From assembly GCF_921293095.1 (NCBI RefSeq), contig NW_025791669.1, positions 310,001-374,000 of the forward strand: a DNA stretch of 64,000 bases. Direction: 5' to 3'. This document shows positions 2,331 to 63,642 of this stretch, in pieces. Source of the stretch: Ischnura elegans. Taxonomy: Eukaryota > Arthropoda > Insecta > Odonata > Coenagrionidae. Under the pieces are notes generated by a model. It was given only the letters and a program-made list of their open reading frames with translations, was not told the origin of the DNA and ran no database searches. A program made the position numbers and the translations under genes. Position 1 is the first letter of the stretch; every line of letters starts with the position of its first letter.

Positions 2331-2459
2331 CATTATCTACATTATCTATATTATTTGAGAGAAAGTTTACTTTTGATCAATTTCTGATGATATCATTTGT
2401 CACGTGGGACAAAATATTAACAAGCTGTGGTTTAGCATCAGTTCACATTGCAAAGGGAC

Positions 2460-2960: not shown

Positions 2961-3590
2961 GATTTGTTACCCACCATTAGTGTATTCATAATATGCAAAT
3001 TATTTGGTTTTAGAAATACCGGTTTAGACGAATAGCAATGGTCAATTTTATCCTCATTTGAAAAAGGCCATATTGGCGCCCTTGAGATGCCACTCCACGT
3101 GACGTCACAGGGACCTAGTTTCTATACGAGTAGATAGGAGTTTTACATCGTCTGAGATTACCAATGCATGCATGAGGCACAGAGCTCAGGGAAACATGTC
3201 TTAATAATTGCTTATTAAAACTGGCTTAGGTCGGAAAGTTTTCGAAAAGAAAATCGTTTGATAAGGTATTAATAATCCTTATTTAAGCCAAGCGATACTA
3301 GCTAGCAGGGTGCTCTGCAATTCTGCGTCGTATCAGCGCTTAAAGCCTCGCCCCAATGTCACCTCAATAGCGGCAGCGGGAACCAGAACGACGTCACACG
3401 GAGTTTTTGCGGCATTCATACTTAGCCGTTGCGTTTTCGCGGGCTTGGAAAATCTCACTTTTCATTTAATCGCGAAAAATAGATATCGTCATTTAAAATT
3501 CTAAAAGCGTGAAATAAGTACTCCAGGAGTAATAATCTTTCCATTTAGGCAATAAAAAAATAATATGAAACCACCCAATTATTTGCACAG
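2460..3590. repeat. ~1.1-kb duplicated unit, copy 1 (RT fragment + spacer + R1)
   Basis: The run of RT fragment, a spacer with CACGTGACGTCACAGGGACC (about 3097-3116), then R1 copy 2 (3229-3590) is repeated in the same order at 18545-19640. The two differ by scattered substitutions and small indels. Either a composite element moved as one piece or a segment of DNA was duplicated about 16 kb apart. Confidence 0.75.
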
Positions 3591-3639
3591 TATTTCATGA
3601 AAGTCTTATTTAATATTTTCAAAGCACTCATAACTTACT

Positions 3640-36060: not shown

Positions 36061-36364
36061 AGTGTGGAAAGGGTATGACATTCGTCGCTCCGCCAAATAA
36101 GTGTTACGTGGGCAGCTGTGAATGGTTGCAGTGTGAAGTTGGCAGATTGTTGAGTCGTGTTGCCGGGGGCAGGGAAATGAAGTTAGGCGGGTCACATCTT
36201 GGATGCGGTTTGGGGCAAAAATGGGTAGGGCATTGCGAAGAGGGTGTGGGGAATACTGCCATGCGGGTTGCGTGCGTGCAGGAAGCTGTAATGCGGAATG
36301 CAGGGACATTGGGACAGGATAGCAGGTGTATAGGAGATTGTCGTGCTGGTTGCATGGGTACGTA

Positions 36365-36556
36365 GGATGGAAGGATATTGTGAAGCGGGTTGCAGGGGTA
36401 CCCTGGATGTCGTGGTGCGGGTTGCATAGGATGGAAGGCTATTGTGAAGCTGGTTGCCGGGGTACTAAGGATGCCCTCGTGCGGGTCGCATAGGATGGAG
36501 GGTTATTGCGAAGCGGGTTGCAGGGGTACCCAGGATGTCGTGGTGCGGGTGGCATG
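36365..36556. repeat. 64-bp minisatellite, three units
   Basis: Units start at 36365, 36429 and 36493. Each reads GGATGGA(A/G)GG...TATTG, GAAGC(G/T)GGTTGC, GGGGTAC and GTGCGGGT. The flanks (36090-36364 and 36557-36700) contain worn relatives of the same words, so this is the eroded edge of the G-rich field. Confidence 0.9.
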
Positions 36557-36714
36557 GGTATGCAGGATAATGTCTTGTGTGGTGCGCAGGTATTGCGTTG
36601 CTGGTTGCGAGGTGTTTCAGGATGTTGTAGTGCTGGTTGAGGCGTATGCAGGATACTGTTGTGCGGGTTTCATGGTTGACAACAGGGTATGCTTTTTCAG
36701 CTTGTGGCGCGGAG

Positions 36715-39720: not shown

Positions 39721-41360
39721 GGGAGAGGCGATGCTGCCTTTTGGGGGGTCATGTGGCGGTCGGGGAGCTGATGCTGCGTGTGCGGCATCCGGTGCTGCCG
39801 GGAGGAGCTGGTTTTGCTGTGGGGGGATCGATGTCGGGGGCCGTTGCTGTACTGAGGGGGAGCGTTGCAGCTGTTGGGGGGAGGCGCTGGTGGATGGGTA
39901 CGTGCGCCTGGGGGCGTCACCGCTGCAGGGGGTAAGCTGGGTAGTTCGCTGTTAAGGGGTCGGTGTTGTAGTGGAGTAGGGTAGCTGTGGTGCTGCAGGG
40001 ATGGTTGGGGGGGAGATGGATGTTACAGATATGGTGGACGGTGGGGATGGACGGCATTGAGGGGGAAGGCTGTATGGATTTAGAGAAATGAGTTGAAGAT
40101 AGGGTGGTGGTGATTGTGTGCGCGGGAGACTTGTGTTCCCAGTTCACGGTGGAACAGGTAATGGAATAGATGGAAATGGTGTTTGGAACATGTGGTGGAA
40201 AATGCGATTGGTGCGTTACATGATTAGTCTTGCGTGGGAAAGAAATAGTGTGTTATACCGTAGGAAAGTACTCTTTCAATAAATAATATTTTTCAAAAAT
40301 CACATGTCAACATTGCCTAGACCGGAATGATATCAATGTTGAAAACGTTGCCGAGTCATCTTAGTAAGGCTTCACTTGGAATATGTGGAGAAGACAGCGA
40401 TATGTATGTAGTAGATAGTAAATTGTAATTGTTTTTGAGGTTTAAAGTCGTGACAAGGAGCCAGTCTTTTGGGTGAATCTGTAAATGGGTGAATGTGAGG
40501 TATGTTGGGCACTGGTGGTTGGCGTCATATGTCATTGTGTGTAGTAGGCATTTTAGGGTGGGACTTATAAGCGGTTTTGTCATTGTTACGGTCTTGTGTT
40601 CCTATGTTGCCGCGGTAGCAATCTGCTCATAGAAGTGGAGTGCTCATAAGCACATAGAGTGGAAGAGAAGAATATGACGGTTTCACTTTGCAGCGCGTAG
40701 TTTTAGATAAGGCTGGGCTACAGGCAAAGTTCAGTGTCCAACGTGGTAATACCTGCTAAGAGAATGAAGAGGGGACATTCATCGCAACTGAGAATAGTGT
40801 AGATGGCTGTAACACATGTCGTACAGTGTCATTGAAGGGAGCGTTCTGTCGTTGTGGATGGAAATACCGTTAAACGATGGCTGGAAAGTCATATGTGAAT
40901 GTTTTGAGTTGTAATGTGGGGATTGAGGAATATTTTTGGCGAAGGTGTTGACATTAATAAATGTTATTCATTGACGATACAAGGTGCGCGCGCATATTTA
41001 GTAGTGATTGTAATTACGGCATATTCTGCTGGGGAAAGCACTGCTTTGTCTCACGTTGATTTGTAATTATGTGGATAACTATTACATTCAAATCGTGGAT
41101 GTTGGCTATCGCACCTAGTCTGTTTTGTTACACGCAACGGCAACGTTGGCGCTCGGGGACGTTAACTCGACGTCAATGATTCCTCTACGTACGTAAAGGG
41201 TGCTATGATTTATGTTAACCTTGTATGTTAAGTGCTGCAAAGGCTCGTGTATTGGATATGTTGTAAAGATTGGGTTTTGGAAGGCTTTAAAATATTCTTA
41301 GTCAACTTTGAAATGATTTTAGTCATCTGTAAAATGTTTCTAGTCACATGTAAAAGTTTT
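39721..41360. other. decayed G-rich flank, then sequence without a recognised gene
   Basis: Up to about 40,100 the sequence still carries GGGG-rich words. Beyond that there is no gene, but the skew goes on (22 G to 4 C in 40141-40200) to about 41 kb. Confidence 0.5.
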
Positions 41361-41371
41361 TATGTCACGAG

Positions 41372-41853
41372 AGCCGTTCGTTGTGTTCGCGGTGTCCCTT
41401 TCCGATGGCATCCACGGTTGGGCACTCCACCGATGGCGACGTCTGCCAACTCGAGAAACCGCCTCGGCGAAAATTCAGCGAACACGTTACATTTTTGAAC
41501 GATGACTTCATTCCTTAGGACAAGTGCTGGCTGCACTTCACTTTGCTACGCTATAGTTCTTCTGCAATTTATGAATTTGTGGACAATGTCAGTGGTGTAG
41601 GCCTGCTCCGCTGCGCTCCGCAGGCCTATACGACTACAGTGTCCAGAAAGTCAAAACTTGCAGAAGAACTATAGCGTAGCAAAGTGAAGTGCAGCCAGCA
41701 CTTGTCCTAAGGAATGAAGTCATCGTTCAAAAATGTAACGTGTTCGCTGAATTTTCGCCGAGGCGGTTTCTCGAGTTGGCAGACGTCGCCATCGGTGGAG
41801 TGCCCAACCGTGGATGCCATCGGAAAGGGACACCGTGAACACAACGAACGGCT
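41372..41853. repeat. 482-bp palindrome next to histone H1
   Basis: Arms 41372-41567 and 41658-41853 are each 196 bp and differ by one base on my reading (TTCGCGG versus TTCACGG). The 90-bp centre has its own hairpin: TAGGCCTGC (41599-41607) against GCAGGCCTA (41620-41628), with a looser outer pairing GGACA...TGTCC. Both arms encode the same open frame, ending PPRRKFSEHVTFLNDDFIP then TAG; on the left arm the Met is at 41405 and the stop at 41516-41518. Such symmetry means the event is recent. A foldback transposon or a break-repair inverted duplication would both fit. Confidence 0.9.
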
Positions 41854-41929
41854 TTTGGTCGGGTTGGGGGTATAAATCTTAAGTGAAGTGTTCAATGAAA
41901 TATCCTGTTCGCAGTAACGTGGCTGGTGG

Positions 41930-42295
41930 TCAGCTGAAGGACCCCGACGCTCCCTTGCCCTTGGTCTGTACGAGTGTGCCGGAGGTGACGGCGGACTTGA
42001 GGTACTTCTTGATGAAGGGGGAGATCTTCTCGGCGTCGACCTTGTAGGAGGCGGCGATGTACTTCTTGATGGCCTGGAGGGAGGAGCCGCCGCGTTCCTT
42101 GAGGCTCTTGACGGCGTTGTTGACCATCTCGGAGGTCGGTGGATGCGAGGGCTTTGCGCGGGCCTTCTTGGAGGCGGCGCCCTTGCTGGCCTTCTTGGAT
42201 GCTGCGGAGGCGGCGGGCAGGGGCTTGACGGCTGCGGTGCCGGACGGCTGGGCCGCCGGGGGCGCTGCTGCGGCTGCTGCGGTAGCGTCTGCCAT
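41930..42295 (-). CDS. H1: histone H1, truncated after the globular domain
   Basis: A 121-codon frame starting [13 protein letters not shown] (ATG at 42295). Residues 1-50 are an Ala/Pro/Lys tail ([16 protein letters not shown]). Residues about 51-121 are a complete winged-helix linker-histone domain: [67 protein letters not shown]1 normally continues Phe-Lys-Leu and a ~100-residue Lys-rich tail. Here TTC AGC TGA ends the protein, just what losing one A from TTC AAG CTG would give. What follows is not Lys-rich, and the palindrome starts 77 bp on. No histone stem-loop is seen downstream. H1 binds linker DNA mainly through the missing tail, so this is a truncated copy or pseudogene, although the domain itself is undamaged. 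Confidence 0.85.
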
Positions 42296-42299
42296 GGTC

Positions 42300-43260
42300 T
42301 CGGACGAGAGGTATGAAGCGATGAAATTTTCGCGTTTCCCACCTTCGAGATATCGTACCATTTCGGAGCGCGTTCGCCGCTGTCGAACTTGTCGTCGGCG
42401 TTCTCCTTCGAATCTTTGTACTCGACTTCGTCTCGCACTTTATCGTTTCGGACGGCGCCGGCGGCTCCGACGTCGGCGTCCGATCTCGACGCGCGAGGCG
42501 ACAGTCCCGGCCGCGCGCGGGCGGCCCGCCGTCGGCGACCGGAACGTCGCGGGCGCCGCGGCGCCCGAGCGAAATACGGCATGTCACCGGCGCGCCTTCC
42601 GACCCGATAATTAAAGTGTCGCCGTGGCGTCGCGGGTTCGCGTGGTCGATCGGCGACCTGCCTCGCCGTTTCTCTGAACCTTCCTGCGTGTGCCGGCACG
42701 CCGGCGCCGGTCTGGACGGCGCCCCGCGGACGGAGAACGATGGTCGGAAGATGTGCCTGTCGGACGGATCGGCGTCGTGTCGCGACGACTCGATCCGCGG
42801 TTGTGCATTCGTCTGTTGCACTTTTCGATCCGAGTTTGCGGCGATTTCGATCGACGATCGAGACGCCACTTCGGCGTCGCCGAAACGCGACTGTTTCCCT
42901 CGATCTCGCCTTTTCGCGACGCCGAAATCACTCTTTCCGCGTGCGACTGCGATCGTTCGCGCTGCCGCGAACCCGCGATCCCCGGGAGAAGCGGACGAAT
43001 GTCCATAATTTTTGTTCTCGTGCCGTTATTCCGCAAACGGCGGCACTCGATTATCGTTTCCCCTTTCCGGCGGGGGCTGAATGTCGCGAGAGTGCTCCGA
43101 TTGCGCCGCGAATCGTGATATTCGAAGGAAATGGAATGACTCCGTTTGACGCTCCTACGGTTTTCGGTTCGCCCCGTTCGTTTCACTCCGTGCGCTTTCT
43201 GTGCCTATTCTGGGGGGAATGTGGTGAATTTGATTCCTGGGCAGGGATTGCGAAAGGTTG
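42300..43260. promoter_or_regulatory. CpG-rich region upstream of histone H1
   Basis: This kilobase is dense in CpG, unlike the surrounding AT-rich DNA. It includes GGGCGCCGCGGCGCCC at about 42551. Several long overlapping frames on both strands are open here because of the composition. It lies on the promoter side of H1 (minus strand). No TATA box at a convincing distance is visible. Confidence 0.5.
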
Positions 43261-44025: not shown

Positions 44026-47000
44026 CACGTTTTAAAACGTGCCTCGTGAAAATCCGACCGGAAGTGTGGTTTCCACGCTCACCTGTTGAGTTTAAACGGA
44101 CACTTTGCAATGTGACGGGCACAGAGCATGGAACATTGTTGAAATTTTCAATTCCGTCGCACTGAAGGTCCACGATAATGTTTGTTTCAATTTATATTCA
44201 CGTTCTAAAACGTCTCCCGTCCAAATCCCTCGGTAATTATTGCTTTTTATGAATAATTTGGAGTATGGCATTGGAAATTTGTTTTTGTCAGCAACGGATT
44301 ACAATATATTTCTTAAACCATGGAATCAGTCGCACTGACACTAGTCACGAATAATTGCCTTAATTTCCTTGTCGTTTTAAAACCGGTCCCATCAAAATTC
44401 ACTGGTTTTTACTGTTCATATGACATAACGTTGATATTGAAAAATCAGCATTTGCTGTCAGACACATAATATGGGATATTTTTCAAAGTATTCATTCTGT
44501 GGCTACGGAACTCCGCAATAATGTTCTTTTTGAATACACCTAAGTTTTGAAACGTCTCCCGTCCAAATCCCACGGTATTTATGGTTTTTAGAAATAATTT
44601 TGAGTATGAAAATGGAAATTTGATTAACTCATTAGCAACTGTAACACATTTTTAAAACTATTTACTCCGTTGCACTGACACTTGTCACGAATATTTGTCT
44701 TAATTTTCTTGTCTTCGCTTACTTACAACCCAAAAAATGGCGTATTTTGAAAGTATTCATTCAGAGACTATGATACTACTCAATAATGTTTGTTTTCACT
44801 TTAAGAACGTTTTAAAACGTCTCCCATCAAAATCCCTCGGTAACTATGGTTTTTATAAATGATATTGAGTTTGATTCTAGGAATTTCATGTTGTCAGCCT
44901 GAGATTGAAAAATATTAATTCAACCATTAATTCAATCGCTCTGACACTCGTCACCGACAATTGCCTTATTTCTCCTATTGTTTTAAAACTTGTCCCACCA
45001 AAATCCGCTGGTTTTCACTGTTTATAGGACATAATGTTGTTACTCAATATATAGCCTCTGCAATATTTCAGTCACTTCAACTGGAATATTTTTTAAACTA
45101 ATTATTCTAACGATACGAAACTCGACACTAATGTATGTTTTACTATTGTTAACGTTTTAGAACGCATCCCGTCAAAATCCCTCGGTAATTATGGTTTTTA
45201 TGAATAATTTTGAGTGTGACACATTTAATGTCATTTTGTCATACACACATTGTAACATATTAATTAAACCATTGATTCAATCGCACTGACACTCTTCACC
45301 AACAATTGCCTTATTTCTCCTATTGTTTTTAAATTTGTCCCACTGAAATCCGCTGGTTTTCACTGTTTATAGGACATAATGTTGTTATTCAATATTTAGC
45401 CTCTGCAATATTTCAGTCACTTCAACTGGAATATTTTTTAAACTAATTATTCTAACGATACGAAACTCGACACTAATGTATGTTTTACTATTGTTAACGT
45501 TTTAAAACGTATCCCGTCGAAATCCCTCGGTAACTATGGTTTTTATAAATGATATTGAGTTTGACCCTAGGAATTTCATGTCGACAGCCAGGGAGTGTAA
45601 CATATTAATTAAACCATTAATTCAATCGCACTGACACTCTTCACCAACAATTGCCTTATTTCTCCTATTGTTCTAAAACTTGTCCCACCAGAATCCGCTG
45701 GTTTTCACTGTTTATAGGACATAATGTTGTTATTGAATATTTAGCCTCCGCAATATTTCAGGCACTTCTACTGGAATATTTTTTAAACTAATTATTCTAA
45801 CGATACGAAACTCGACACTAACGTATGTTTTGCTATTGTTAACGTTTTAAAACGCATCCCGTCAAAATCCCTCGGTAATTATGGTTTTTATGAATAATTT
45901 TGAGTGTGACACATTTAATGTCATTTTGTCATACACACATTGTAACATATTAATTAAACCATTGATTCAATCGCACTGACACTCTTCACCAACAATTGCC
46001 TTATTTCTCCTATTGTTTTTAAATTTGTCCCACTGAAATCCGCTGGTTTTCACTGTTTATAGGACATAATGTTGTTATTCAATATTTAGCCTCTGCAATA
46101 TTTCAGTCACTTCAACTGGAATATTTTTTAAACTAATTATTCTAACGATACGAAACTCGACACTAATGTATGTTTTACTATTGTTAACGTTTTAAAACGT
46201 ATCCCGTCGAAATCCCTCGGTAACTATGGTTTTTATAAATGATATTGAGTTTGACCCTAGGAATTTCATGTCGACAGCCAGGGAGTGTAACATATTAATT
46301 AAACCATTAATTCAATCGCACTGACACTCTTCACCAACAATTGCCTTATTTCTCCTATTGTTCTAAAACTTGTCCCACCAGAATCCGCTGGTTTTCACTG
46401 TTTATAGGACATAATGTTGTTATTGAATATTTAGCCTCCGCAATATTTCAGGCACTTCTACTGGAATATTTTTTAAACTAATTATTCTAACGATACGAAA
46501 CTCGACACTAACGTATGTTTTGCTATTGTTAACGTTTTAAAACGCATCCCGTCAAAATCCCTCGGTAATTATGGTTTTTATGAATAATTTTGAGTGTGAC
46601 ACATTTAATGTCATTTTGTCATACACACATTGTAACATATTAATTAAACCATTGATTCAATCGCACTGACACTCTTCACCAACAATTGCCTTATTTCTCC
46701 TATTGTTTTTAAATTTGTCCCACTGAAATCCGCTGGTTTTCACTGTTTATAGGACATAATGTTGTTATTCAATATTTAGCCTCTGCAATATTTCAGTCAC
46801 TTCAACTGGAATATTTTTTAAACTAATTATTCTAACGAGTACGTTTTACTATTGTTAACGTTTTAAAAACGCATCCCGTCAAAATCCCTCGGTAATTATG
46901 GTTTTTATGAATAATTTTGAGTATGACACATTTAATGTCATTTTGTCATACACACATTGTAACATATTAATTAAACCATTGACTCAATCGCACTGACACT

Positions 47001-50000
47001 CGTCACCGACAATTGCCTTATTTCTCCTATTGTTTTTAAATTTGTCCCACCAAAATCCGCTGGTTTTCACTGTTTATAGGACATAATGTTGTTATTCAAT
47101 ATTTAGCCTCTGCAATATTTCAGTCACTTCAACTGGAATATTTTTTAAACTAATTATTCTAACGATACGAAACTCGACACTAATGTATGTTTTACTGTTG
47201 TTAACGTTTTAAAAGGTATCCCGTCAAAATCCCTCGGTAATTATGGTTTTTATAAATAATATTGAGTTTGACCCTAGGAATTTCATGTCGACAGCCAGGG
47301 AGTGTAACATATTAATTAAACCATTAATTCAATCGCACTGACACTCTTCACCAACAATTGCCTTATTTCTCCTATTGTTCTAAAACTTGTCCCACCAAAA
47401 TCCGCTGGTTTTCACTGTTTATAGGACATAATGTTGTAATTCAATATTTAGCCTCTGCAATATTTCGGTCACTTCTACTGGAATATTTTTAAAACTAATT
47501 ATTCTAACGATACGAAACTCGACAGTAACGTATCGTTTTACTATTGTTAACGTTTTAAAACGCAATCCCGTCAAATCCCTCGGTAAATACGGTTTTTATG
47601 AATAATTTTGAGTGTGACACATTTAATGTCATTTTGTCATCTCACACATTGTAACATATTCATTAAACCATTGATTCAATCGCACTGACACTCGTCACCA
47701 ACAATTGCCTTATTTCTCCTATTGTTTTAAAACTTGTCCCACTAAAATCCGCTGGTTTTCACTGTTTATAGGACATAATGTTGTTATTCAATATTTAGCC
47801 TCTGCAATATTTCAGTCACTTCAACTTGAATATTTTTTAAACTAATTATTCTAACGCTACGAAACTCGATACTAACGTATGTTTTATTATTGTTAACGTT
47901 TTAAAACGCATCCCGTCAAAATCCCTCGGTAATTATGGTTTTTATGAATAATTTTGAGTGTGACACATTTAATGTCATTTTATCATTCACACATTGTAAC
48001 ATATTAATTAAACCATTGATTCAATCGCACTGACACTCGTCACCAACAATTGCCTTATTTCTCCTATCGTTTTAAAACTTGTCCCACCAAAATCCGCTGG
48101 TTTTCACTGTTTATAGGACATAATGTTGTTACTCAATATATAGCCTCTGCAATATTTCAGTCACTTCAACTGGAATATTTTTTAAACTAATTATTCTAAC
48201 GATACGAAACTCGACACTAATGTATGTTTTACTATTGTTAACGTTTTAGAACGCATCCCGTCAAAATCCCTCGGTAATTATGGTTTTTATGAATAATTTT
48301 GAGTGTGACACATTTAATGTCATTTGTCATACACACATTGTAACATATTAATTACACCATTAATTCAATCGCACTGACACTCGTCACCAACAATTGCCTT
48401 ATTTCTCCTATTGTTTTAAAAACTTGTCCCACCAAAATCCGCTGGTTTTCACTGTTTATAGGACATAACGTTGTTATTGAATATTTAGCCTCTGCAATAT
48501 TTCAGTCACTTCAACTGGAATATTTTTCAAACTAATTATTCTAACGCTCTACGAAACTCGACACTAACGTATGTTTTATTATTGTTAACGTTTTAAAAAC
48601 GCATCCCGTCAAAATCCCTCGGTAATTATGGTTTTTATGAATAATTTTGAGTGTGACACATTTAATGTCATTTTGTCATTCACACATTGTAACATATCAA
48701 TTAAACCATTGACTCAATCGCACTGACACTCGTCACCAACAATTGCCTTATTTCTCCCCATTGTTTTAAAACTTGTCCCACCAAAATCCGCTGGTTTTCA
48801 CTGTTTATAGGACATAATGTTGTTATTCAATATTTAGCCTCTGCAATATTTCAGTCACTTCAACTGGAATATTTTTCAAACTAATTATTCTAACGCTACG
48901 AAACTCGACACTAACGTATGTTTTATTATTGTTAACGTTTTAAAACGCATCCCGTCAAAATCCCTCGGTAATTATGGTTTTTATGAATAATTTTGAGTGT
49001 GACACATTTAATGTCATTTTGTCATTCACACATTGTAACATATCAATTAAACCATTGACTCAATCGCACTGACACTCGTCACCAACAATTGCCTTATTTC
49101 TGCTATTGTTTTAAAACTTGTCCCACCAAAATCCGCTGGTTTTCACTGTTTATAGGACATAATGTTGTTATTCAATATTTAGCCTCTGCAATATTTCAGT
49201 CACTTCAACTGGAATATTTTTCAAACTAATTATTCTAACGCTACGAAACTCGACACTAACGTATGTTTCATTATTGTTAACGTTTTAAAACGCATCCCGT
49301 CAAAATCCCTCGGTAATTATGGTTTTTATGAAAAATTTTGAGTTTGACACATTTAATGTCATTTTGTCATTCACACATTGTAACATATCAATTAAACCAT
49401 TGACTCAATCGCACTGACACTCGTCACCAACAATTGCCTTATTTCTCCTATTGTTTTAAAAACTTGTCCCACCAAAATCCGCTGGTTTTCACTGTTTATA
49501 GGACATAATGTTGTAATTCAATATTTAGCCTCTGCAATATTTCAGGCACTTCTACTGGAATATTTTTAAAACTAATTATTCTAACGATACGAAACTCGAC
49601 AGTAACGTATGTTTTACTAATGTTAACGTTTTAAAAACGCATCCCGTCCAAAATCCCTCGGTAAATACGGTTTTTATGAATAATTTTGAGTGTGACACAT
49701 TTAATGTCATTTTGTCATTCACACATTGTAACATATTCATTAAACCATTGATTCAATCGCACTGACACTCGTCACCAACAATTGCCTTATTTCTCCTATT
49801 GTTTTAAAACTTGTCCCACTAAAATCCGCTGGTTTTCACTGTTTATTAGGACATAATGTTGTTATTCAATATTTAGCCTCTGCAATATTTCAGTCACTTC
49901 AACTTGAATATTTTTTAAACTAATTATTCTAACGCTACGAAACTCGATACTAACGTATGTTTTATTATTGTTAACGTTTTAAAACGCATCCCGTCAAAAT

Positions 50001-50760
50001 CCCTCGGTAATTATGGTTTTTATGAATAATTTTGAGTGTGACACATTTAATGTCATTTTGTCATTCACACATTGTAACATATTAATTAAACCATTGATTC
50101 AATCGCACTGACACTCGTCACCAACAATTGCCTTATTTCTCCTATCGTTTTAAAACCTGTCCCATCAAAATCCGATGCTTCTAACGGTTTATGAGATATA
50201 ATGTGTATATTGGAAATTCATCCCTTGCAATATATCAGGCACTTGAAATGGGATATTTTTGAAATTACTAACTCTAGGGCTATGAAACTCTACACTTATG
50301 AATGCTTCAATATTATCTACGATTATAAACGTCTCCCAACATAATCCCTCGGTAATTAAGATTTTTATAAATAATTTTGTGTATGGCAATTGAAATTGCA
50401 TTTTGTCAGCTCCTGGGCTTCACATATTTTTTAAAGCTATTAAATCCGTCGCACTGAAATTCGTCACGAATAATTGCCTTCATTTTCCTGTCGTTTTAAA
50501 GTAGCCCCATGGAAATCCGCTGGTTTTTACGGTTTATAGGACATAATGTTGATATTGAAAGTTGAGGTTTAGCAAACGGTCAGGCACAAAATAGGATATT
50601 ATTGATACTATTAACTCTAAGGCTATGAAACTCCACACTAACGTATGTTTTAATTTTAAGAACGTTTTAAAACGTCTCCCGTCAAAATCCCTCGGTAATT
50701 ATGGTTTTTATGAATAATTTTGAATATCACAATTGGAATTTCATTTACTCAGCCACACAA
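44026..50760 (+). repeat. 345-bp satellite array built of ~172-bp half units
   Basis: The word AACGTTTTAAAACG recurs at 44806, 45151, 45496, 45841, 46186, 46531, 46857, 47203, 47549, 47895, 48240, 48587, 48934, 49279, 49625 and 49973, a spacing of 345-348 bp with one 326. Each unit has two related halves: TTTTAAAACGCATCCCGTC...AAATCCCTCGG and, about 171-174 bp later, TTTTAAAACTTGTCCCACC...AAATCCGCTGG. Two unit types (GTGTGACACATTTAATG and GTTTGACCCTAGGAATTTC) alternate at 45151-46530, giving a 690-bp dimer present twice almost unchanged. Units near both ends (44026-44800, 50200-50760) are much more diverged. There are about 19-20 units in all. Confidence 0.95.
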
Positions 50761-51833: not shown

Positions 51834-51849
51834 GCCACTAGGGCGCACC
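51834..51849 (+). promoter_or_regulatory. CTCF-like motif, variant, opposite orientation
   Basis: GCCACTAGGGCGCACC resembles the animal CTCF core (CCASYAGRKGGCR), one base short in the G stretch. It points the other way from the four motifs further right. Confidence 0.35.
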
Positions 51850-52499: not shown

Positions 52500-53220
52500 T
52501 GAAAACACGCGAATAAAATATGTAGAAAATATTTCACATAGTGACATTTCTTTCTCAAAAGAAATTTTCGCGGCATATTCCGGCTCTGCATTGCTCGCGG
52601 TAGGTGATTGAAAATATTTTTTTTAAACAAGTTGAAGAATAAAAGTAATGCCAACAGCACCCGGTATTCCCAGGCGGTCACCCGTCCAAGTACTATCCGG
52701 GCCCTACGTAGTTTAACTTCGGTGATCGAACGAGAACCGGTGAATTGTACGTGGTGTGGCCGTTGGCGAGTACATGACCGAATCCTCAAAAAGTTATCAT
52801 GACTTGAGAATCGAAGGAAGATCTGGTTTCTTCGCGGTTGTATCTGCTTTTGTTTCTGTTGAATAGTTACCATTTCCAGACAACAGTCCCTTGATGCTTA
52901 AGCAATTCTCAATTCCGTTATATCTTTTGGTCCATCTTTGAAAATGTGTTTATGAAAAATGTCTTTCGTAACGGTGTGCTTGTTGGTGTAATGGCGATTC
53001 GTTTCAGCTTTAATCCATTGGTAAATGTCGCCTGTTGTTGTTTCGACTGTTTAATGATCGATGTAACGCAAGGGATGCATTTACTTCTTCAAAGAAATTT
53101 TCTGGCAAAAGATGATTATGTAATGCGTAACGAGGGAATTAATTTGAGAAAGATAATTCTTGTCGTTCCAATTTCTTCATCTACATTTTCCGGACTTGAC
53201 GGTGTTATGCTCTTTGTTGG
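52500..53220. repeat. segmental duplication D1, copy 1
   Basis: It parallels 61250-61850 through GAAAATATTTCACA, TTCGCGGCATATTCCGGC / TCTCGGCATTTTCTGGC, AAAATGTGTTT(A/C)TGAAAAATG, GGTGTGCTTGTT and AATGTCGCCTGTTGTTG. A 5S rRNA sequence sits inside this copy but not at the matching place in the other. No gene is recognised. Confidence 0.8.
52650..52767 (-). rRNA. 5S rRNA copy 1 (diverged)
   Basis: 118 bp on the minus strand: GCCAACGGCCACACCACG ... CACCGGTTCTCGTTCGATC, ATCACCGAAGTTAAAC, AGTACTTGGACGGGTGACC, GGGTGCTGTTGGC. The A-box, intermediate element and C-box order of a pol III 5S gene is kept, and a TTTT run follows the 3' end. It differs from the arthropod consensus and from copy 2 at about ten sites (for example CGTACAATTC for CGTTGAATAC), so it is probably a pseudogene or minor variant. 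5S-derived SINEs also look like this, but no SINE body follows. Confidence 0.75.
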
Positions 53221-54880
53221 TTAAGCAATGTGTAAAAAATCGTTTTCACCATTCTTGGAACAAAATGTTTTTCCCTACATTCATACATTTTTCTTTATGT
53301 CATTTATCTATCTCCCAATGCCAACACACTGCCACGGAGACAGGAATTCGTGGTTTTACTCCGAGTTATATTACGGAATAGGAAATTATTATCCTTCCTC
53401 GCTTATCGCGCTTCACTCTTTTTTCCCAATTGCGATTATGAGGTGGCATTACTGCCCCTGTGATGCGAACCGATTTCGTAACATTTACGTGGAGGAATGA
53501 CGAACGATAGTGCGCCCCTTCAAAAAAACTGTCCGTTGGCAGGGAGCCGACCTCGATTCAAAGTTCTCCCCTACCGACAGTTGCTTACGTCACACGCTGC
53601 CGCTTCTCGGTCGGGGAGACGTACCTTCCCCCACCACCATTTCCGACCGTGGGAACAAGAGTCCCCTTCAATGTTCCCATACAGGCGGGCGACTGGCATT
53701 TGCTTTCGTGAAACGTATGCCCGACGGAAATATTTCCAACCCTAAAATTTCACTTGCGCTATGGAAACACTTCATTGGACGTGTACACCGATCATTGATT
53801 GATAAATTCCTCGACATGGACTATTGCGTGAAAGTAATGAAAGTGTACTGTTGACGAAGGAACGGTATACATTGAGCGTTTTTTCTTTTTTTCAAGTATT
53901 ACACGTTATCTCGAAGCCTTGCAAAACCCTACTTCCATTAATGGCAGTCGATTACCTTTCCAACATTTTTAATGGTGCTATGCCATGAAAGTATGTGTTG
54001 CTGTCATTGGAGTGATTATCCTCGCCTGCAAGTCTTTCGATACGGCAGGTATTGAATGATGCCATGAATAGAAAACACTTACTCACTTTTTACGTCGACG
54101 GGAAACAAACGAAGGAGGCCATTGCGTCTTTTGAAAAATTCGCCCGTTGGAACTTCTTTTTTTCTTCCCGGCGTCCCCTGCCCCACTCGCTGCGTTTAGG
54201 TTCGTGGTGGGGGAACCCGTCCCCCACCACCGGATCAAGCGTGGGAACTACCCCACACACCGGGTTCCCAGGAAAGTTGTCTTCGTTGACCCCAAGAATT
54301 TCCCCACCCCCGGATTCTTTCCACGTGGCGGTACTTCGCACGAAGAGAGAGTGCGTTACAAAAAATTTGTGGACGAATAAAACTTTGAAACGGTATGGAG
54401 GGAAATGTTTATAACTGACTGCACGAAATGGATTACGTCGCACTGGTTTTTTCTGAAACAGTCTTCATCAATGAATTAGAGAATGAGGGATACAAATACA
54501 TCTTCCACTAAGGACGCTGAATAATCTGATTCGCCAAGTAATACTTTCCAACTGCAACGAAAGAAAATGCTCGTGACGAGGGAGCATAATTTTAGACGAT
54601 TCCGGCATTTAACGCGACTCCGGTGTGTATGGAAAAGGTGTTTGCGATATTCCGTGTCCACCACGGCTAAAAATTTATTTCAAAGTCACGGGGGACTGCA
54701 TTGGGAATGATGCATCACATTTTAGAATTTTCTTTCATTCCCGTGATTTAATGAAGGGGAAAATAGGCGCTCTGGGATTTTCTCACCCGCGCGGTTACCC
54801 GAAGGAATGTTTCTTATTTCAGTAGCCGCCTTTCCGTCGGCCGATGTGCGCAGAGAAAGAGTCTGTGAATCGCCGGGAGA
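53221..54880. other. no recognised gene; two related GC-richer patches
   Basis: Patches at about 53510-53700 and 54120-54300 share CCCGTTGG / TCCGTTGG, CCCCCACCACC, GCGTGGGAAC-like and GGTTCCCA words, so this is another worn duplication, ~0.6 kb apart. Frames across them are short and unlike any family I know. Confidence 0.4.
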
Positions 54881-54888
54881 AGCACGCC

Positions 54889-54905
54889 CGCACCATCTAG
54901 CGGCG
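54889..54905 (-). promoter_or_regulatory. CTCF-like motif, unit 1
   Basis: CGCACCATCTAGCGGC on plus; the minus strand reads GCCGCTAGATGGTGCG, close to the animal CTCF core CCASYAGRKGGCR. It is one of four near-identical sites. Confidence 0.5.
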
Positions 54906-56689
54906 GCGGCGGAACCATACTCGGACAGTTCGCAGCCAAGTGCGAAATAGGCGACCAGCTTGTTATTAGTTAATTTATGGTATATTAATACGAGACGCAG
55001 TCATTCACTAGTAACCGAAGAAGGGGAGAATATCAATAACATTCTCGCTTTTTCTGCATTTCCCTTGCAAACCATTCCTAATTAACATGCTGAAGTAACA
55101 CAATGGCAAGAATGGTTTCCAATGCGGTGCACGAAAAAAAATTATGTTAGAATTATGGAGTTATGACTAAATTTATCAAAGTTTTCGGTTCACGAGGGAC
55201 ATCAAAATATTTGGTAGAAATCAGCAAAGGATTTGGGTAAAGTGTATGAAATTGGATTGCTATTTGTCAACTTACAGGCCACAGAATTTTTTTTCCCGTG
55301 TCTTATATGTCTTCGGGAGGCAATTTATATTAAGCAGACAACATTCCCCTATTAATAAAAATTAGCAGTACTTGCAAGAAGTGGCATTTTTGATAAGCGA
55401 ATTCCATGATTTTCCACCGTTGGTTGCTATGTTACGTCGCACGTAACGTTGAAAGAATTAGCGATGCAAAGTTTCCATTATTTGCTGTACTCGCGTTACG
55501 TCTTGCATTGAAATGTTTATGTGTAGCAAACAGCCAACAGGAAACCAAATAACTTCGTTACTAAGGGTAAACTATATCGTTCAGCGCTCAAGCGAAACTG
55601 CTCAATGTCACGAAAAGCTTTCCAAATAATTGAGTTATGCTTTGAAAATCATTGTGGAAGAGACGAGTGTGTTCATTAACATATACTCAAGGCAGAAGGC
55701 ACGGAAATTTATTGCTACGGATTAAGTCGTTCCGTGCGTTTTAATACAGTGTAGAGAAATGTGGATTGCCTACTCATAAGATATTAATTAATCGGTTCTC
55801 TCCCTTTACTGACTAAATGTACGGCTATACTCCGAAACTCTGCGAACTTTTCTCGTGTACTGCGAATATGTACAACTATGGGAGTTCGGTTTAAGGATAA
55901 GTCGTTGACACTGGCAGACAGTGACGATATCACTTATTGAGAAGAGGAAGGATATTTGACGTATGTAGGGTGCAATCGAGGAAGGAAAGTAGACCTGACT
56001 ACTCACGAGGAATAATTAATTCGCATAAGGAAATTCTTCGATCGCTCGCGAAAGGATGTAATTTCCGCTTCACTCCGATGGCAAAGAGACTGGAGAACGA
56101 TTGTCATTCACCGTGGCATGCAAAAATGTAGTAAGAACTTACGGTACCGTTAGGGAAAATGTAAAATTGAATCGTGGACAACTGCGGGGCAGCAACTCGG
56201 GCACGAAACATTTTCAGAGTAGGAAGGAACGGTGACAAACAGTTAAATCGCTCACTGCATTCGTCGCGGAATCGATATGCTAATGAAATGGTCCGGTATT
56301 TACGGCTAATCAATGAATCACTTCTAATCACCTAACCTAAGGTATAACCGAGCCGAGTTCTTTCCCCGCTTATCCGTGTTATCGCGACGAGCACCTACGT
56401 CCGAGATGTTCTCTGCCTCGCGGCCCCCCTGCCCTGCACCCGCGATGCCGAGAATCGTCAGCCGCACGGAGTGTATTCCTGCCTGGAGTCGAAGCGGTCC
56501 GCTCCCTCCGAACGCCGAAATGAAATGCAAATCGCGGGCGGAGGAAAGACACCGCTTGACAGTCGTCACTTCACTGGCAGATGATCATTTACGAGGCGGT
56601 CGTGTTCCGATCATGTACGTTTAAACGATACTGTGTTTGATGAATGGATTATTTACATATATTCCGTGCTTCGCGTCGTTGGAATACAG

Positions 56690-58030
56690 TGCGGTGTTTC
56701 ATTGTTGTAAATGACAACATTTGTTTTTTCCGCATTTCACGACAATTGACCGCGGATGAGTCGATAAATCATTCATCGTGGCTAGCGTTCGCATACTTGC
56801 GCCGAGTCGCAATCCGGGATAGAAATCCCACCGAGAGACGATATTTCAAATTCCGCTCTGGACGTCCACGGCGAGCGACTGCGAAAAGGCCTCCCGCGCC
56901 ATCTGTCGGCGGATTCTGAATTACTACTCGATCAGCGGTAGCTGTCGTGAGAAGACGACGCGAATAATTATTATCAGTTATAATTAGTCCATGTTTATCA
57001 GCGGTTACTCACATAACGCCGGTTATGTAGTGTTCTTTGTGACGCACAGCAAACGCGAGGAAATGAGTGAAAGTGTCTGTGTCGATGGATGTATAGGAAA
57101 AGTGAGTGAAATGCACGAGAATCAATAGTGTGATGAAAACAGCGATTCTGATAGCCGTGCAGGTGAATACTGTGATCCACAACCAGCGAGCCGAGTAAGT
57201 ACGCTATTACTTATTTAAACACTTTTCACGCTCGTATTCGTTGACTGTGTTGTTCCTTGCGTTTCTCTTTCGTGTGGAAAAGTAAACTGTGTAGTGATTA
57301 ATTCACTGTTTGACGATGATGACGGTTGATTGATCCCAACGTGTAATTGTGTATCCTAAGAAAACCGAAATTATTCGTGGCGTCCTTAATTGTTACAAGT
57401 TGAGTGAATCGTGGCTTAATTTAAAACTGTTTGCCTTTTCTGTGCTAAGGCGTTGATGGTTATCCCTTGCACTTTGTATGTTAGGCACTGTGCACTGTTT
57501 GAAATGTTGACGAAAGAGTGGAAGGAAGAATATTTTTCGCTAATTTCTTCCTTAGCAACGGATTGCTGGTTTCACATTAGTGAACTACGGAATAATTAAA
57601 TGGAAGTGTTTAGCGTGTTATATCGTCGTCCTTAAATTTGCATGAGTGAAGTGATTTTAATTGGCAGATCTTGATTAGTAATACGTGTCAATGCTAAGTC
57701 TAGCAAGTGCAATGAAAGAACAATTAACGATGTTGACGATTACACGTCCCATTCCTACCGTCAGGCGTCGTTGGTTATTCTTAACGTTCCTTTCGTGGGA
57801 ATGTAATTCCTTTTGTGCTATTTCATTTTTTTCTTGGCAGCGGAATAACGTAAATAATTAGGGCAGGGATATTGTAACGTAAATAATTTGGGCAGTTTTA
57901 TGGTAAGCTGTGATAACTTAACATGTGATTTTAAAAGCGAACTGTTAGCATAACGGAGCCCAAGGAATGTTATCGGACGTAGTAGAGGAATTACTTTTCA
58001 AACGTCAAAGGCAAACTCACAAACATTTCC
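56690..58030 (+). repeat. paralogous unit U2 with conserved splice-donor-like site
   Basis: It aligns with 58310-59585 along ~1.3 kb. Shared in order are ACGACAATTGAC, the CTCF-like motif, GAGAAGACG, CATAACGCCGGTT, GTAGTGTTCTTTGTGACGC, GAAAGTGTCTGTGTCG, GAGCCGAGTAAGTACGCT (GT at 57195), GACGATGATGACGGTTGATT, CTTAGCAACGGATTG (57551) and AACGTCAAA. No long conserved reading frame runs through it. CGAGTAAGTA is a strong 5' splice site shape, so the ~300 bp before it could be exon 1 of a non-coding transcript on the plus strand. Confidence 0.6.
56895..56912 (-). promoter_or_regulatory. CTCF-like motif, unit 2
   Basis: CGCGCCATCTGTCGGC on plus; GCCGACAGATGGCGCG on minus. This is the closest of the four to the vertebrate consensus in its GGCGC end. 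Same orientation as its paralogues. Confidence 0.55.
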
Positions 58031-58309
58031 CATATTGTACTGCCTCTTTCAGTAATTCCTGATTGCTACATCATTTCCTTCGCCATACGAATGTTAACAG
58101 TGACATCCGTACTTGATATATTGGTTTGAAAATCGCTTGGAAATCGTCGAAAACCACGTAAGACTCTGCATCATGCGGTACGTTTTGGTGGATATTTTGA
58201 GGTACAAGAGTACTCTATATTCCAATTATGCAAATGTTCACCACATTGCGCTTGAATCTTGGCTTAATTTACGATATTATATGCGACTTTAAGGCGGGGA
58301 TTTGGTCGT

Positions 58310-59585
58310 TCGATGTGCCATTGTTGTGGAGAACATTAATAGTTCACGACAATTGACAATCGATGGTTCATTAGGTATGGCAAGGATTCGCATATTGCCG
58401 CTGCGTTGCGAATAATTATCCCAATTGCTTTCCCACGCGCGATTCCTAATTCCCAACAGCGATGCGCGCAGTGGACTGCTGGAGGTTCCCCCCGCACCAT
58501 CTAGCGGCCGAATCTGTATTACCACTCGATCGCTCTTGCTGCGGCAGCTGTGGTGAGAAGACGTCGCGAGTAACTAATATCAGTGATAATTGTATAATGT
58601 TTATCAGCTGTAACTGACATAACGCCGGTTCTGTAGTGTTCTTTGTGACGCTTGGCAATCGTGAGGAAAGGATTGAAAGTGTCTGTGTCGCTGGATGCAT
58701 AGGAAAAGTTAGTGAAATGTACGGGAATGAAGTGTGTTGACAACAGCGATTGTGATCTACAGCCGAAGAGCCGAGTAAGTACGCTGTTACTTATTTTTCC
58801 ACTTTTTACATTCATAATCGTTGTCTGTGTTATTCCTTGGCTTTCTCTTTTGTGTAGAAAGTGAACTGTGATGTGATTAATACACTGTTTGACGATGATG
58901 ACGGTTGATTGATCCCAGCGTTTAATTGTGCATCGTAAGAAAACATAAATTACTCGTGGCGTCCTTAATTGTTTCAAGTTGAGTGAATCGTGGCATAATT
59001 TAAAAGTGTTTGCCTTTGAATGTGCTAAGACGTTGATGGTTTTCCCTTGCACTTTGTATCTTAGGCACTGTGCACTGTTTGAAATGTTGACGAAGGAGTT
59101 GAAGGAAGAACATTTTTCGCGAATTCCTTAGCAACGGATTGTTTGGTTTCACAAAATTTATTACGGAATATTTTAATGGAAGTGTTTACGGTGTTACATC
59201 GTGGTCGTATACTCTGTATGTGTGAAGTTATGTGCATTGGCAGATCCGGATTAATAATAAGTGTAATGCTATGGTATTTGGACTGCTGTTATGAAAGCAG
59301 TCAGCGATGTCGAATAGTGCACACCCGCATTTCCACTGTCAGCCGGCGTTGATTATTGTTAACGTGCCTTTCGTCCGAATATAATTCCTTGTGTGATATT
59401 TCATAACTTCTTCGCAGTGGAACTACATAATTAATTAGGGCAACGATAACATTCCATGGTAATGCTGTGTTAAGTTGACATGTGACTTGAAAAGCGTAGT
59501 GTTAGCATCACGGAGGCCAAAAGAATTTTATCGGATATGGAAAAGGAATTAATTGTAAAACGTCAAATCACAAACGTTTCCTCAG
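58310..59585 (+). repeat. paralogous unit U3 with conserved splice-donor-like site
   Basis: This is the second well-preserved copy. Its CTCF-like motif is at 58493, the GT of GAGTAAGTA at 58775 (282 bp later, against 300 in U2) and CCTTAGCAACGG at 59126. By eye it matches U2 at roughly four of five positions, so the duplication is old, yet the motif and donor have stayed almost unchanged. Confidence 0.6.
58493..58510 (-). promoter_or_regulatory. CTCF-like motif, unit 3
   Basis: CGCACCATCTAGCGGC on plus, identical to units 1 and 4 in this core. Before it, GGACTGCTGGAGG parallels GGACTGCGGAGTGG of unit 4. Confidence 0.5.
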
Positions 59586-60400
59586 ACTCGTGAAATTGGA
59601 GACCAGCAAAACGCCATTGTCATATGATTGAATGGAAACCGTGAAATGTTGTAAGTAGCGGCACTCATACGCAAGTTTATTTGTGATTTTGCAAAATTAT
59701 GTTCATCGTTGGTTATCGGAAATGTGGGAACGCATTGTGCAAAGCGTCGAAGACTATTTTAAGTCCTCGACACTCATTTTCGCACACCGCATGTGTTATG
59801 ATTTTCGGGAAAAAATGTAAACTGTGCTCTTTCAATGCGTTACTGATTGTTACGAGGTAACCGTAGGGGCTCGAAATTTCAAAAGGTTTCGCCATGGGTG
59901 ATAATTACTCGATGTCATTACATCAAACTTTATAATCGCTGGTCTTTCCCGGGGAAGGGAATGAGAAATGTGATTGTTGACGTGCTAATTATCCTTAGCA
60001 ACCGGGTGTTTGCTGGTTTCATTGCAGTTGTTTTCAATTGTTTGAACAAGTACTGACGCTGAAGTTGTTGCACCGATTTGCGTGTGGGAAGTGTACCACT
60101 ACTAATTGCTTGCATTGAAAAATTCTTATTGTTGCGAATTAAGTATCGATAGTAAGTATCGTACGTTTGCGTTTCATTGTCTTTGATAGGCCGTCGAAAT
60201 TGTGCTTCGTAGGACGTCGTGCGTTTGATGAGTAACTGTTACAATAAATCTGTAATGGAATTGATGTAATGAATCGTTCACGAAACAACTCCGCGATTAA
60301 TGTATTTCTCGAATGCATCTGCAAGCTTTTTTTTTCGTTTAACCGATTGCAGGCGTGCCATTACAACGTAAACGAGACATAATGAAAGAAAGAAATTGCG
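59586..60400. other. no recognised gene; part of a third worn relative of U2/U3
   Basis: CCTTAGCAACCGG at 59993 with GTTTGCTGGTTTCATTG after it parallels the downstream part of U2 and U3. Frames are short. Confidence 0.4.
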
Positions 60401-61250
60401 TCCTTCATGTTCCGGGAGCACAATTTTATCCATCGCATGACAACGCAAGTTCGGACGACAGCATTTTGTTTTGCTTTTCTCCAGGCTCGACACCCCCGAT
60501 ACCGGCTGCCTAGTCAGTGTGCGTGTCGAGACTTGCAGGAACTCAATTCGTATGGGAGTGGAAGTGGTCCGCTAGTTTTGAACGCGAAAATAAAATGCGA
60601 TACGCCGAGCGACGCTCGGTGGTCGGCAGTTAATAGCATTGCCCGGATTTAATTTCCTTCAGTCAAAATTAACATTCACCAACGATGAGAAATGTGCAGG
60701 TTTACAATGATGTGTTCATAGATTGAATTTATAAGTGGTTTTACGTGCGAAACGGACGCAAGCTTTGCGTCTTCGGACGAAAAGGCTATGTGCCATTGCT
60801 GTCATTAATAGTAATTGTTCGAGACAGTCAAGATCCGAGGACTCGACAGCGTATGCATTGGCATTGTTGACCTCGGTCGTAAACAATAGCCCGGGTGCGC
60901 TCTCCCTCGGGGGATCGAACGTTCAAACTTGTGTTTGCACGCGCCCGGCGAGGCAGGCACCGGACTGCGGAGTGGCCTCCGTCGCACCATCTAGCGGCAG
61001 CGCGTGTTACTTTTTGAGCACTCACGATGCAATACTTGTCCCGGGATGCGGATGACGAGATTAATTATTACATTGTTGCAAGTTTGTCAGTGACACCTGA
61101 CATTACGTCGTTTGTATCTTCCACCTTTTGACGCAACACACGTGTAAGAAAAGGAATGATGAATGATCAATAGCCGATCCGGTTAATGAAGGGAATCGCA
61201 CGTAGCAGGGTTTTAATTATTACGCTATGAATTAATTTTCGTTTCCAGAA
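60400..61250 (+). repeat. paralogous unit U4 (worn)
   Basis: It contains GTGGTCCGCTAGTTTTGAAC, like the CGGTCCGCTCCCTCCGAAC at about 56498, then the CTCF-like motif (60983), then GATGACGAGATTAATTATTAC, like GACGACGCGAATAATTATTA of U2. No donor-like GTAAGT is kept at the matching place. Confidence 0.5.
60983..61000 (-). promoter_or_regulatory. CTCF-like motif, unit 4
   Basis: CGCACCATCTAGCGGCAG on plus; the minus strand reads CTGCCGCTAGATGGTGCG. Same core and orientation as units 1 and 3. Confidence 0.5.
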
Positions 61251-61850
61251 AATCTTAAAGGAGAATACTAATCGTTGAAAGCATTTCACAAATTGACCTT
61301 CGTCTTCTTTTTTTAAAGAATTTTTCTCGGCATTTTCTGGCAATGCATAGCTCGTGGTAGCTGAGTTAAAATATTTTTTTAAGTTTAATAGTTGCCAGTT
61401 TCCCGCAGTAGTTGGATGTGCTTTAGTGTCTCTCAATTCCGTTATTTCATGTACTCGATATTTGAAAATGTGTTTCTGAAAAATGTCTGTAGCAACGGTG
61501 TGCTTGTTACTGTAATGGCGATTTCTTTCAGCTCCCATCGCTTAGTGAATGTCGCCTGTTGTTGTGTCAACTGTTTCATGATCGAAATTATTTTGGGTAT
61601 GCATTTCATTTTAAAAATGGATTCGCAGGAAATGGAGCATTATGGAATGCAGACAGGAAAAGCAGTTCTCTCAAGGAATAATTTCGAGAAGTACATTGTT
61701 CGGCGTTACATTACTTTATGTAAATTTTCCGGGCTTGACTGTTTTAAGCGCGGTTTCTCTACGAATGACAACGAATGTATCAACCTAGGAACAGAAATAT
61801 ATTATCCAAGAGTGGTGAATAAAAAAGTTATATCGATCGTTCGTGGAACA
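61250..61850. repeat. segmental duplication D1, copy 2
   Basis: Relative of 52500-53220, about 8.5 kb away. It carries a 154-codon plus frame (61392-61856) whose homologous stretch in copy 1 is split between frames, so I do not call it a gene. Confidence 0.8.
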
Positions 61851-63270: not shown

Positions 63271-63642
63271 TTACTTGGAGCTGGTGTACTTGGTCACAGC
63301 CTTGGTGCCCTCAGACACGGCGTGCTTGGCCAGTTCACCGGGGAGCAGGAGCCTGACGGCGGTCTGCACCTCCCTGGAGGTGATGGTGGAGCGCTTGTTG
63401 TAGTGAGCGAGACGGGAAGCCTCGGCGGCGATCCTCTCGAAGATGTCGTTGACGAAGGAGTTCATGATGTTCATGGCCTTGGAGGAGATACCGGTGTCAG
63501 GGTGGACCTGCTTCAACACCTTGTAGATGTAGATTGCGTAGCTCTCCTTCCTCCTGCGCTTCTTCTTCTTGTCTCCCTTGGAGATGTTCTTCTGGGCCTT
63601 GCCGGCCTTCTTGGCAGCCTTTCCGCTAGTCTTGGGTGGCAT
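63271..63642 (-). CDS. H2B: histone H2B
   Basis: A complete 123-codon frame, the usual insect H2B length. The N-terminal tail [20 protein letters not shown] and [14 protein letters not shown] carry the acetylated lysines. The fold follows: [19 protein letters not shown] (alpha 1), [20 protein letters not shown] (alpha 2), [20 protein letters not shown] (alpha 3), then [20 protein letters not shown] (alpha C with the ubiquitinated lysine near the end). It pairs with H2A in the nucleosome core. No stop or shift is present, there is no intron in the coding part, and a stem-loop follows, so it is very likely a working replication-dependent gene. The usual divergent H2A partner is not found in the 350 bp left in the window upstream. 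Confidence 0.97.

What the first reader, a model, noticed from the sequence alone, without database searches (positions are those of the whole stretch)
54880..61010. Family of paralogous segments each headed by the same CTCF-like motif, two with a conserved splice donor
Seen: CGC(A/G)CCATCT(A/G)GCGGC-type sites at 54889, 56895, 58493 and 60983, all in one orientation, each in a segment related to the others. In the two best units the distance from motif to a GAGTAAGTA donor is 300 and 282 bp, while the sequence between has changed at many positions. Known: CTCF binds CCASYAGRKGGCR-type sites and marks insulators and alternative promoters, as in protocadherin clusters. Inference: this could be an insulator-linked family of non-coding first exons, amplified between satellite and histone/5S genes. 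I know of no such described unit.
Basis: partly seen in the sequence, partly recalled or inferred. Interest (0 to 1): 0.72.

Follow-up and report, generated by a model that had tools for sequence, protein, structure and literature searches.

The report
CTCF-like sites in histone-5S repeats
Each copy of a large repeated block of histone and 5S rRNA genes in this animal genome carries four same-facing DNA words that resemble landing sites for the genome-insulating protein CTCF, kept while the DNA around them drifted; whether they act as insulators is untested.

Summary
The four motifs are real, same-facing and beyond chance. Three host segments (U2, U3, U4) are true paralogues; U1 shares nothing detectable beyond the motif. 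They fill the spacer between two 5S rRNA genes in a giant tandem repeat (30.9 and 41.5 kb in the two contigs measured) that also holds all five histone genes and a 345-bp satellite. The window shows the left edge of that array. A diverged spacer type keeps three of three motifs found; U1, U3 and U4 sites are nearly invariant across sampled copies while U2 drifts. The motif is the most conserved window of the segment heads (1 of 20000 column shuffles reaches it). Similar words are enriched genome-wide, and one CTCF-like exon is encoded, though other CTCF probes failed. Best reading: a CTCF-type insulator cluster repeated once per histone/5S unit. The first-exon idea is not supported: the putative exon is no more constrained than the putative intron, and no donor was seen in U4. 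A new variant of CTCF-bearing macrosatellites; binding and transcription are untested.

The parts
54889..54904 (+). U1 motif CGCACCATCTAGCGGC; CTCF-core reading CCGCTAGATGGTG is on the - strand (54891-54903)
56895..56910 (+). U2 motif CGCGCCATCTGTCGGC (variant; drifts between array copies)
58493..58508 (+). U3 motif CGCACCATCTAGCGGC
60983..60998 (+). U4 motif CGCACCATCTAGCGGC
56605..58030 (+). Segment U2, paralogous to U3 (73.7% over 1450 aligned columns)
   Evidence: strong core 56890-58030, 78%
58220..59581 (+). Segment U3, paralogous to U2 and, in its head, to U4
60555..61159 (+). Head of segment U4 (matches U2 at 56485-56535 and 56877-57070, U3 at 58313-58676)
57193..57201 (+). GAGTAAGTA donor-like word in U2 (function unsupported)
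58773..58781 (+). GAGTAAGTA donor-like word in U3 (function unsupported)
52649..52767 (-). 5S rRNA gene (5S-prime) at the left end of the spacer
   Evidence: Rfam RF00001, 101 bits
62215..62333 (-). 5S rRNA gene at the right end of the spacer
   Evidence: Rfam RF00001, 108.7 bits
52849..53210 (+). Segment repeated at 61374-61749 (70.7%), beside each 5S gene
61374..61749 (+). Segment repeated at 52849-53210 (70.7%)
51835..51847 (+). CCACTAGGGCGCA, 12 of 13 to the human CTCF consensus, facing the other way; present in the three other fetched repeats that cover it
44105..50756 (.). 345-bp satellite array (tandem rows 44806-50723)
41930..42361 (-). Histone H1, cut short (143 aa against 262 aa in C82) at the array edge near 41918
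63271..63642 (-). Histone H2B of the next part of the repeat
   Evidence: Pfam PF00125

Best explanation
The spacer between the two 5S rRNA genes of a giant histone/5S tandem repeat carries a cluster of four same-facing CTCF-type sites, one at the head of each of four segments, at least three of which arose by tandem duplication. Shown: the sites, their repeat context, the paralogy of U2/U3/U4, the retention of the motif while flanks diverged, the genome-wide enrichment of the word and one CTCF-like exon. Inferred: CTCF (or its arthropod form) binds them and makes an architectural insulator or barrier in every repeat, separating the RNA-polymerase-II histone genes from the polymerase-III 5S genes and the neighbouring satellite, and possibly spacing repeats from one another. 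The 5S genes may also help the spacer move as a cassette, since an isolated copy in C13 starts and ends inside 5S sequence.
For: Four sites beyond chance. Macro-repeat with U1-U2-U3-U4, 5S, H2B, H2A, H4, H3, H1, satellite, 5S-prime in two independent contigs, C82 and C46. Motif is the best-conserved 13-column window of a seven-row head alignment, 10 of 13 columns invariant, 1 of 20000 column shuffles as good. Type-B spacer keeps it: B-U2 16/16, B-U3 all 13 core bases at 66% flank identity, B-U4 15/16 at 77%. In sampled copies the core ACCATCTAGCGGC is kept in 19 of 19 U1-type, 13 of 13 U3 and 6 of 7 U4 rows, the seventh (type B) with one A-to-G. U1 keeps 16/16 with U3 and U4 although nothing else is shared. 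Word family enriched genome-wide: CRCCATCTRGYGGC 436 against 9 reversed, and words that avoid CATCT 175 against 41 and 207 against 60. Sites score 11 of 13 to the human consensus; the G at position 3 also occurs in the chicken beta-globin FII site CCGCTAGGGGGCAG (PMC6746451, one passage). Spacer CpG observed/expected 1.33 against 0.48 in the 36 kb to the left of the array.
Against: No binding, Hi-C, methylation or RNA data. By consensus alone the sites are unremarkable: 17 places in the window, these four included, reach 11 of 13 or more, two of the others 12. Several pairwise comparisons show no special retention (windows at least as conserved: U2-U3 224 of 393, U4-BU4 55 of 473, U2-BU2 38 of 388; and pairs where the alignment did not superpose the motif, such as U2-U4 312 of 407, U1-BU3 211 of 448). 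The heads were cut around the motif, which favours it in alignment. U2 differs in the sampled copies (six words in 15 rows). Array copies are homogenised, so their agreement is weak evidence. Three other CTCF probes found no CTCF exon: 283 aa (137 of 2093 candidates scored), ZF7-10 (150 of 2722) and one back-translated word (0 matches); against all PDB chains ZNF568 chains outrank CTCF by whole-sequence score. Much of the 436 comes from this array, an interspersed repeat and an LTR-like element. In Drosophila, CTCF and CP190 gave no meaningful signal over the histone array (PMC10515271, passages).
Confidence: 0.5

Rival explanations
1. The motif is a selected binding site, but for another factor: another C2H2 zinc-finger protein of the very large set in this genome, or YY1/Pho through CCAT. 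The spacer may then be a promoter or enhancer for histone/5S transcription rather than an insulator.
For: Motif retention does not name the protein. The genome holds very many C2H2 genes (2093 to 3753 candidate places, most listed ones on C13-C17). The core contains CCAT (recalled YY1 core).
Against: The enrichment extends to words that follow the CTCF consensus without CATCT (175 against 41, 207 against 60), and A/G and C/T exchanges in the kept sites fall at positions where the CTCF consensus is degenerate.
Confidence: 0.2
2. Promoters and non-coding first exons: each segment starts a plus-strand transcript, spliced at GAGTAAGTA in U2 and U3.
For: The donor words exist at 300 and 282 bp in the two most alike units and are identical. 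DXZ4, a CTCF-bearing repeat, also keeps a promoter beside its CTCF site (PMC3218863, abstract and passages).
Against: Exon side 0.839 and intron side 0.812 identical, p 0.37; no donor word in U4 or U1; similarity of type-B U3 ends at 58653, before the donor. GTAAGT occurs 19 times in 67.7 kb on both strands.
Confidence: 0.12
3. No function: the spacer is a by-product of array turnover; the motif is kept by homogenisation, by recombination at the shared word, or by chance, or came with a transposon.
For: Copies are 95-100% alike in the best 40 of 138 candidates. In C60 and C74 U4 and U1 are joined close to the motif. An interspersed repeat (27 of 42 sampled sites) and an LTR-like element carry the same core.
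Against: U1, which shows no kinship in its flanks, shares 16/16 with U3 and U4; type-B copies diverged by 23-34% keep the core; the repeats that carry the core share only 15 bp with the array (LTR element), and five unique sites share at most 30 bp.
Confidence: 0.15

Closest known systems
Human/mouse tRNA tandem repeat at 1q23.3 (PMC4041453; abstract and outline seen)
   Same: Multi-kb tandem unit with polymerase-III genes and a CTCF site; there the tRNA genes and a 24-bp CTCF site are what human and mouse share.
   Different: There CTCF binding was measured; here it is inferred. Here the unit is 30.9-41.5 kb, has 5S instead of tRNA genes, all five histone genes, and four sites.
DXZ4 macrosatellite (PMC3218863; abstract and passages)
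   Same: Tandem repeat in which a CTCF site is retained while the rest of the unit diverges.
   Different: DXZ4 is X-linked, 3-kb units, non-coding; here units carry housekeeping genes and the organism is an invertebrate.
Sea urchin sns5 insulator in the early histone repeat (PMC3784565; passages)
   Same: An insulator inside each unit of a tandem histone cluster.
   Different: [quoted passage not shown] here the sites lie outside the histone genes, between two 5S genes.
Drosophila histone array (PMC10515271; passages)
   Same: Arthropod tandem histone quintet.
   Different: About 5-kb array with no meaningful CTCF or CP190 signal; no 5S or CTCF-type spacer described in the passages seen.
CTCF sites carried by mammalian SINEs (PMC3368268; passages)
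   Same: A repeat that multiplies copies of a CTCF word.
   Different: There dispersed retroelements; here a tandem array (though an interspersed repeat in this genome does carry the core).

Membership tests
CTCF binding site | Match to the consensus CCASYAGRKGGCRS | tested here: inconclusive
   11 of 13 for each of the four sites (0.14% of random 16-mers do as well), but 17 places in the window reach 11 or more
CTCF binding site | Genome encodes CTCF | tested here: met
   One exon, 37 of 46 identical to human CTCF ZF3-5; three other probes found none, so the rest of the gene was not seen
CTCF binding site | Word retained under divergence of flanks | tested here: met
   not met in every pair
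CTCF binding site | Occupied in vivo | not testable with these tools
   needs ChIP or CUT&RUN
CTCF-bearing macrosatellite | Multi-kb tandem unit with a site in every unit | tested here: met
   C82 and C46 repeats, and 7.7-kb tandem units with four motifs each in C60 and C74
CTCF-bearing macrosatellite | Boundary or looping function | not testable with these tools
   needs Hi-C or an enhancer-blocking assay
Protocadherin-type alternative promoter array | Each unit has a motif plus a first exon with a donor, spliced to a shared downstream exon | tested here: not met
   donor word only in U2 and U3; no exon constraint; no shared downstream exon was sought by RNA
Transposon copies | Dispersed copies on chromosomes | tested here: not met
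   U2/U3 head word: 116 places, 100 listed, all on C13 or C27 and higher-numbered contigs, none on C1-C12; 16 places not listed. Best 40 of 138 candidates of the U2 head also none on C1-C12

The most novel reading that the evidence does not exclude
An arthropod histone/5S locus in which every repeat is bounded by its own oriented CTCF cluster, with a further opposite-facing CTCF-like site at 51835 next to the 5S-prime gene, so that each unit could form a loop or barrier of its own; CTCF would then insulate co-resident polymerase-II and polymerase-III arrays, which Drosophila does not appear to do.
Probability: 0.25. Interest if true: 0.75.

Novelty: new variant of a known kind. Interest (0 to 1): 0.5.

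Why it matters
How tandem histone and 5S arrays are kept active and apart from neighbouring heterochromatin is open, and the insulators known there (sea urchin sns5) are not of the CTCF type, while Drosophila shows no CTCF on its array. A natural histone/5S unit with four oriented CTCF-type sites, present in dozens of copies, would let one ask directly whether CTCF separates polymerase-II and polymerase-III units in an arthropod. My ten paper searches listed no such locus; they cover only open-licence papers.

Tried and rejected
Rfam at relaxed threshold on 54800-61300 gave only two sub-threshold snoRNA matches (58708-58757, 20.7 bits against a cut-off of 39; 56278-56336, 22.2 against 50), not taken as real. 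tRNA scan: none in the window. Origin of the segments from the LTR-like element or from the five unique chromosomal sites: rejected, 15 to 30 bp shared at most. The site on C4 (L068) shares 21 bp with the array. A protein-coding reading: two spacer ORFs gave no Pfam match. I did not identify the species; 'arthropod' is inferred from H2B (best full-length PDB matches include 2pyo and 2nqb, which I recall as Drosophila) and from genome size.

In one search the 42 sites were 5 loci and 37 of the 38 short stretches fetched, which I picked from the first 100 of 436 places, leaving out the 4.65-kb pairs; so 27 of 42 is not a random sample.
Full report
Observation. The two GAGTAAGTA words are at 57193 and 58773. 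Outside the motif, U2, U3 and U4 are related on both sides (each of six comparisons 0 of 300 shuffles), but U1 is not. So three segments are paralogues and the fourth shares the motif alone.

Context. The window is C27:310001-374000 of a 1.72-Gb genome, and C27 ends at 377681. The exact 16-mer occurs 105+81 times against 1+0 for the reversed pattern. On C82 the whole arrangement recurs at 30,884 bp, on C46 at 41,454 bp. Read in window direction each repeat is U1-U2-U3-U4, 5S, H2B, H2A, H4, H3, H1, 345-bp satellite, 5S-prime. Similarity to the repeat begins in the window at 41918, inside H1, whose product is 143 aa against 262 aa in C82; I read this as the left edge of the array. The U2-specific word GTCGGC was counted 39 times and ATCGGC 19 times; other U2 words exist, so these are lower bounds for the number of spacers.

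Other spacer forms. C60 (four successive units) and C74 carry 7.7-kb tandem units with U1, a shortened U2, U3 and a U4/U1 fusion; no histone or 5S match lies within the C60 units. C13 holds one spacer whose ends fall inside 5S sequence. C60:29.5-37 kb and C57 (L069) hold a diverged type-B spacer; the two are 98.4% alike over L069.

Retention of the motif. Type-B keeps U2 16/16, U3 14/16 with the 13-bp core intact at 65.8% flank identity, and U4 15/16 at 76.9%. In a seven-row alignment of heads the motif window has 10 of 13 invariant columns (27 of 168 gap-free columns invariant overall); 1 of 20000 column shuffles does as well. The heads were cut around the motif, which helps it. Pairwise, the motif is among the best 2 to 6 of 409 to 448 windows in U1-U3, U1-U4, U3-U4, U3-BU3 and U4-BU3, but not in others, for instance U2-U3 (224 of 393 at least as good) or U4-BU4 (55 of 473), and in pairs such as U2-U4, U1-BU3, BU3-BU4 and BU3-BU2 the alignment did not superpose it well. 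Across fetched copies the core is in 19 of 19 U1-type rows, 13 of 13 U3 rows and 6 of 7 U4 rows, while 15 U2 rows show six words. Array homogenisation makes these counts weak evidence; the type-B and U1 comparisons are the stronger ones.

Is it CTCF? The human consensus is CCASYAGRKGGCRS and the chicken FII site CCGCTAGGGGGCAG (PMC6746451, one passage). The four sites score 11 of 13; so do or exceed 13 other places in the window. CRCCATCTRGYGGC occurs 436 times against 9 reversed; of 42 places sampled outside the array (not at random), 27 belong to one interspersed repeat and 15 have unrelated flanks. In addition eight pairs about 4.65 kb apart among the first 100 places suggest an LTR-like element, seen directly in two. 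Consensus-like words without CATCT are still enriched, 175 against 41 and 207 against 60. A CTCF-like exon lies at C5:45197822-45198007 (83.1 bits against 60.4 for the next; 150 of 3753 candidates scored), 37 of 46 identical to a typed human stretch. Three other CTCF probes found nothing recognisable as CTCF, and against the PDB, CTCF chains rank below two or three multi-finger ZNF568 chains by whole-sequence score. CTCF was reported from nearly all arthropod transcript sets screened (PMC5094011, passages). So CTCF is the best candidate, not a proven one.

First exons. Identity of U2 and U3 is 234/279 before and 651/802 after the donor (p 0.37), so nothing marks an exon. The donor is absent from the aligned U4 and U1, and type-B U3 similarity stops at 58653.

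Composition. CpG observed/expected is 0.48 in window 1-36000 and 1.33 in 52.7-62.2 kb; in C82 bins covering spacer and satellite are 1.06-1.54 and the bins from H2A to H2B 0.61-0.87. This would fit a spacer spared from germline methylation, but the pooled flanks of chromosomal sites are also high (1.18), so the genome background is not established.

Mechanism. I infer a CTCF-type barrier in each repeat between the polymerase-II histone genes and the polymerase-III 5S genes and satellite. All four sites face one way; a 12-of-13 consensus match at 51835 faces the other way and is present in the three other fetched repeats that cover it, so a convergent pair around 5S-prime is possible; this is speculation. 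Precedents for insulators in repeated gene units: sns5 in sea urchin histone repeats, not CTCF-like (PMC3784565, passages), and CTCF in a human tRNA tandem repeat (PMC4041453, abstract). In Drosophila CTCF and CP190 gave no meaningful signal on the histone array (PMC10515271, passages), which counts against a general arthropod role.

Noticed in passing
C1, C2, C3 and others; L031-L064: An interspersed repeat carries CGCCATCTAGCGGC with shared flanks (27 of 42 sampled sites): a possible spreader of CTCF-type sites in this genome.
   Followed up: partly
L029:529-5439, L030:466-5369: An LTR-like element of 4.9 kb with 256-257-bp end repeats, each holding CACCATCTAGCGGC; eight pairs 4.63-4.66 kb apart among the first 100 places. 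Its proteins were not looked for.
   Followed up: partly
C13, C14, C16, C17: Very many C2H2 zinc-finger genes on a few mid-sized contigs, with 2093 to 3753 candidate places for CTCF-type queries.
   Followed up: no
window 41918-42361: The histone array starts inside H1, leaving a 143-aa H1 without its lysine-rich tail.
   Followed up: partly
window about 40000-42000; C82 repeat: CpG observed/expected jumps from 0.2-0.7 to above 1 near the array edge and falls to 0.61-0.87 between H2A and H2B in C82.
   Followed up: partly
C60:37971-66921, C74:1-20000: 7.7-kb tandem units made of the spacer segments alone, with a U4/U1 fusion joined close to the motif.
   Followed up: partly
C13:7174739-7184539 (L019-L020): A single spacer whose two ends lie inside 5S gene sequence, as if cut out between the two 5S copies.
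   Followed up: partly
window 36363-39635: G-rich minisatellite tract (GGTGCGTGGGGGG-type units) just outside the array edge.
   Followed up: no
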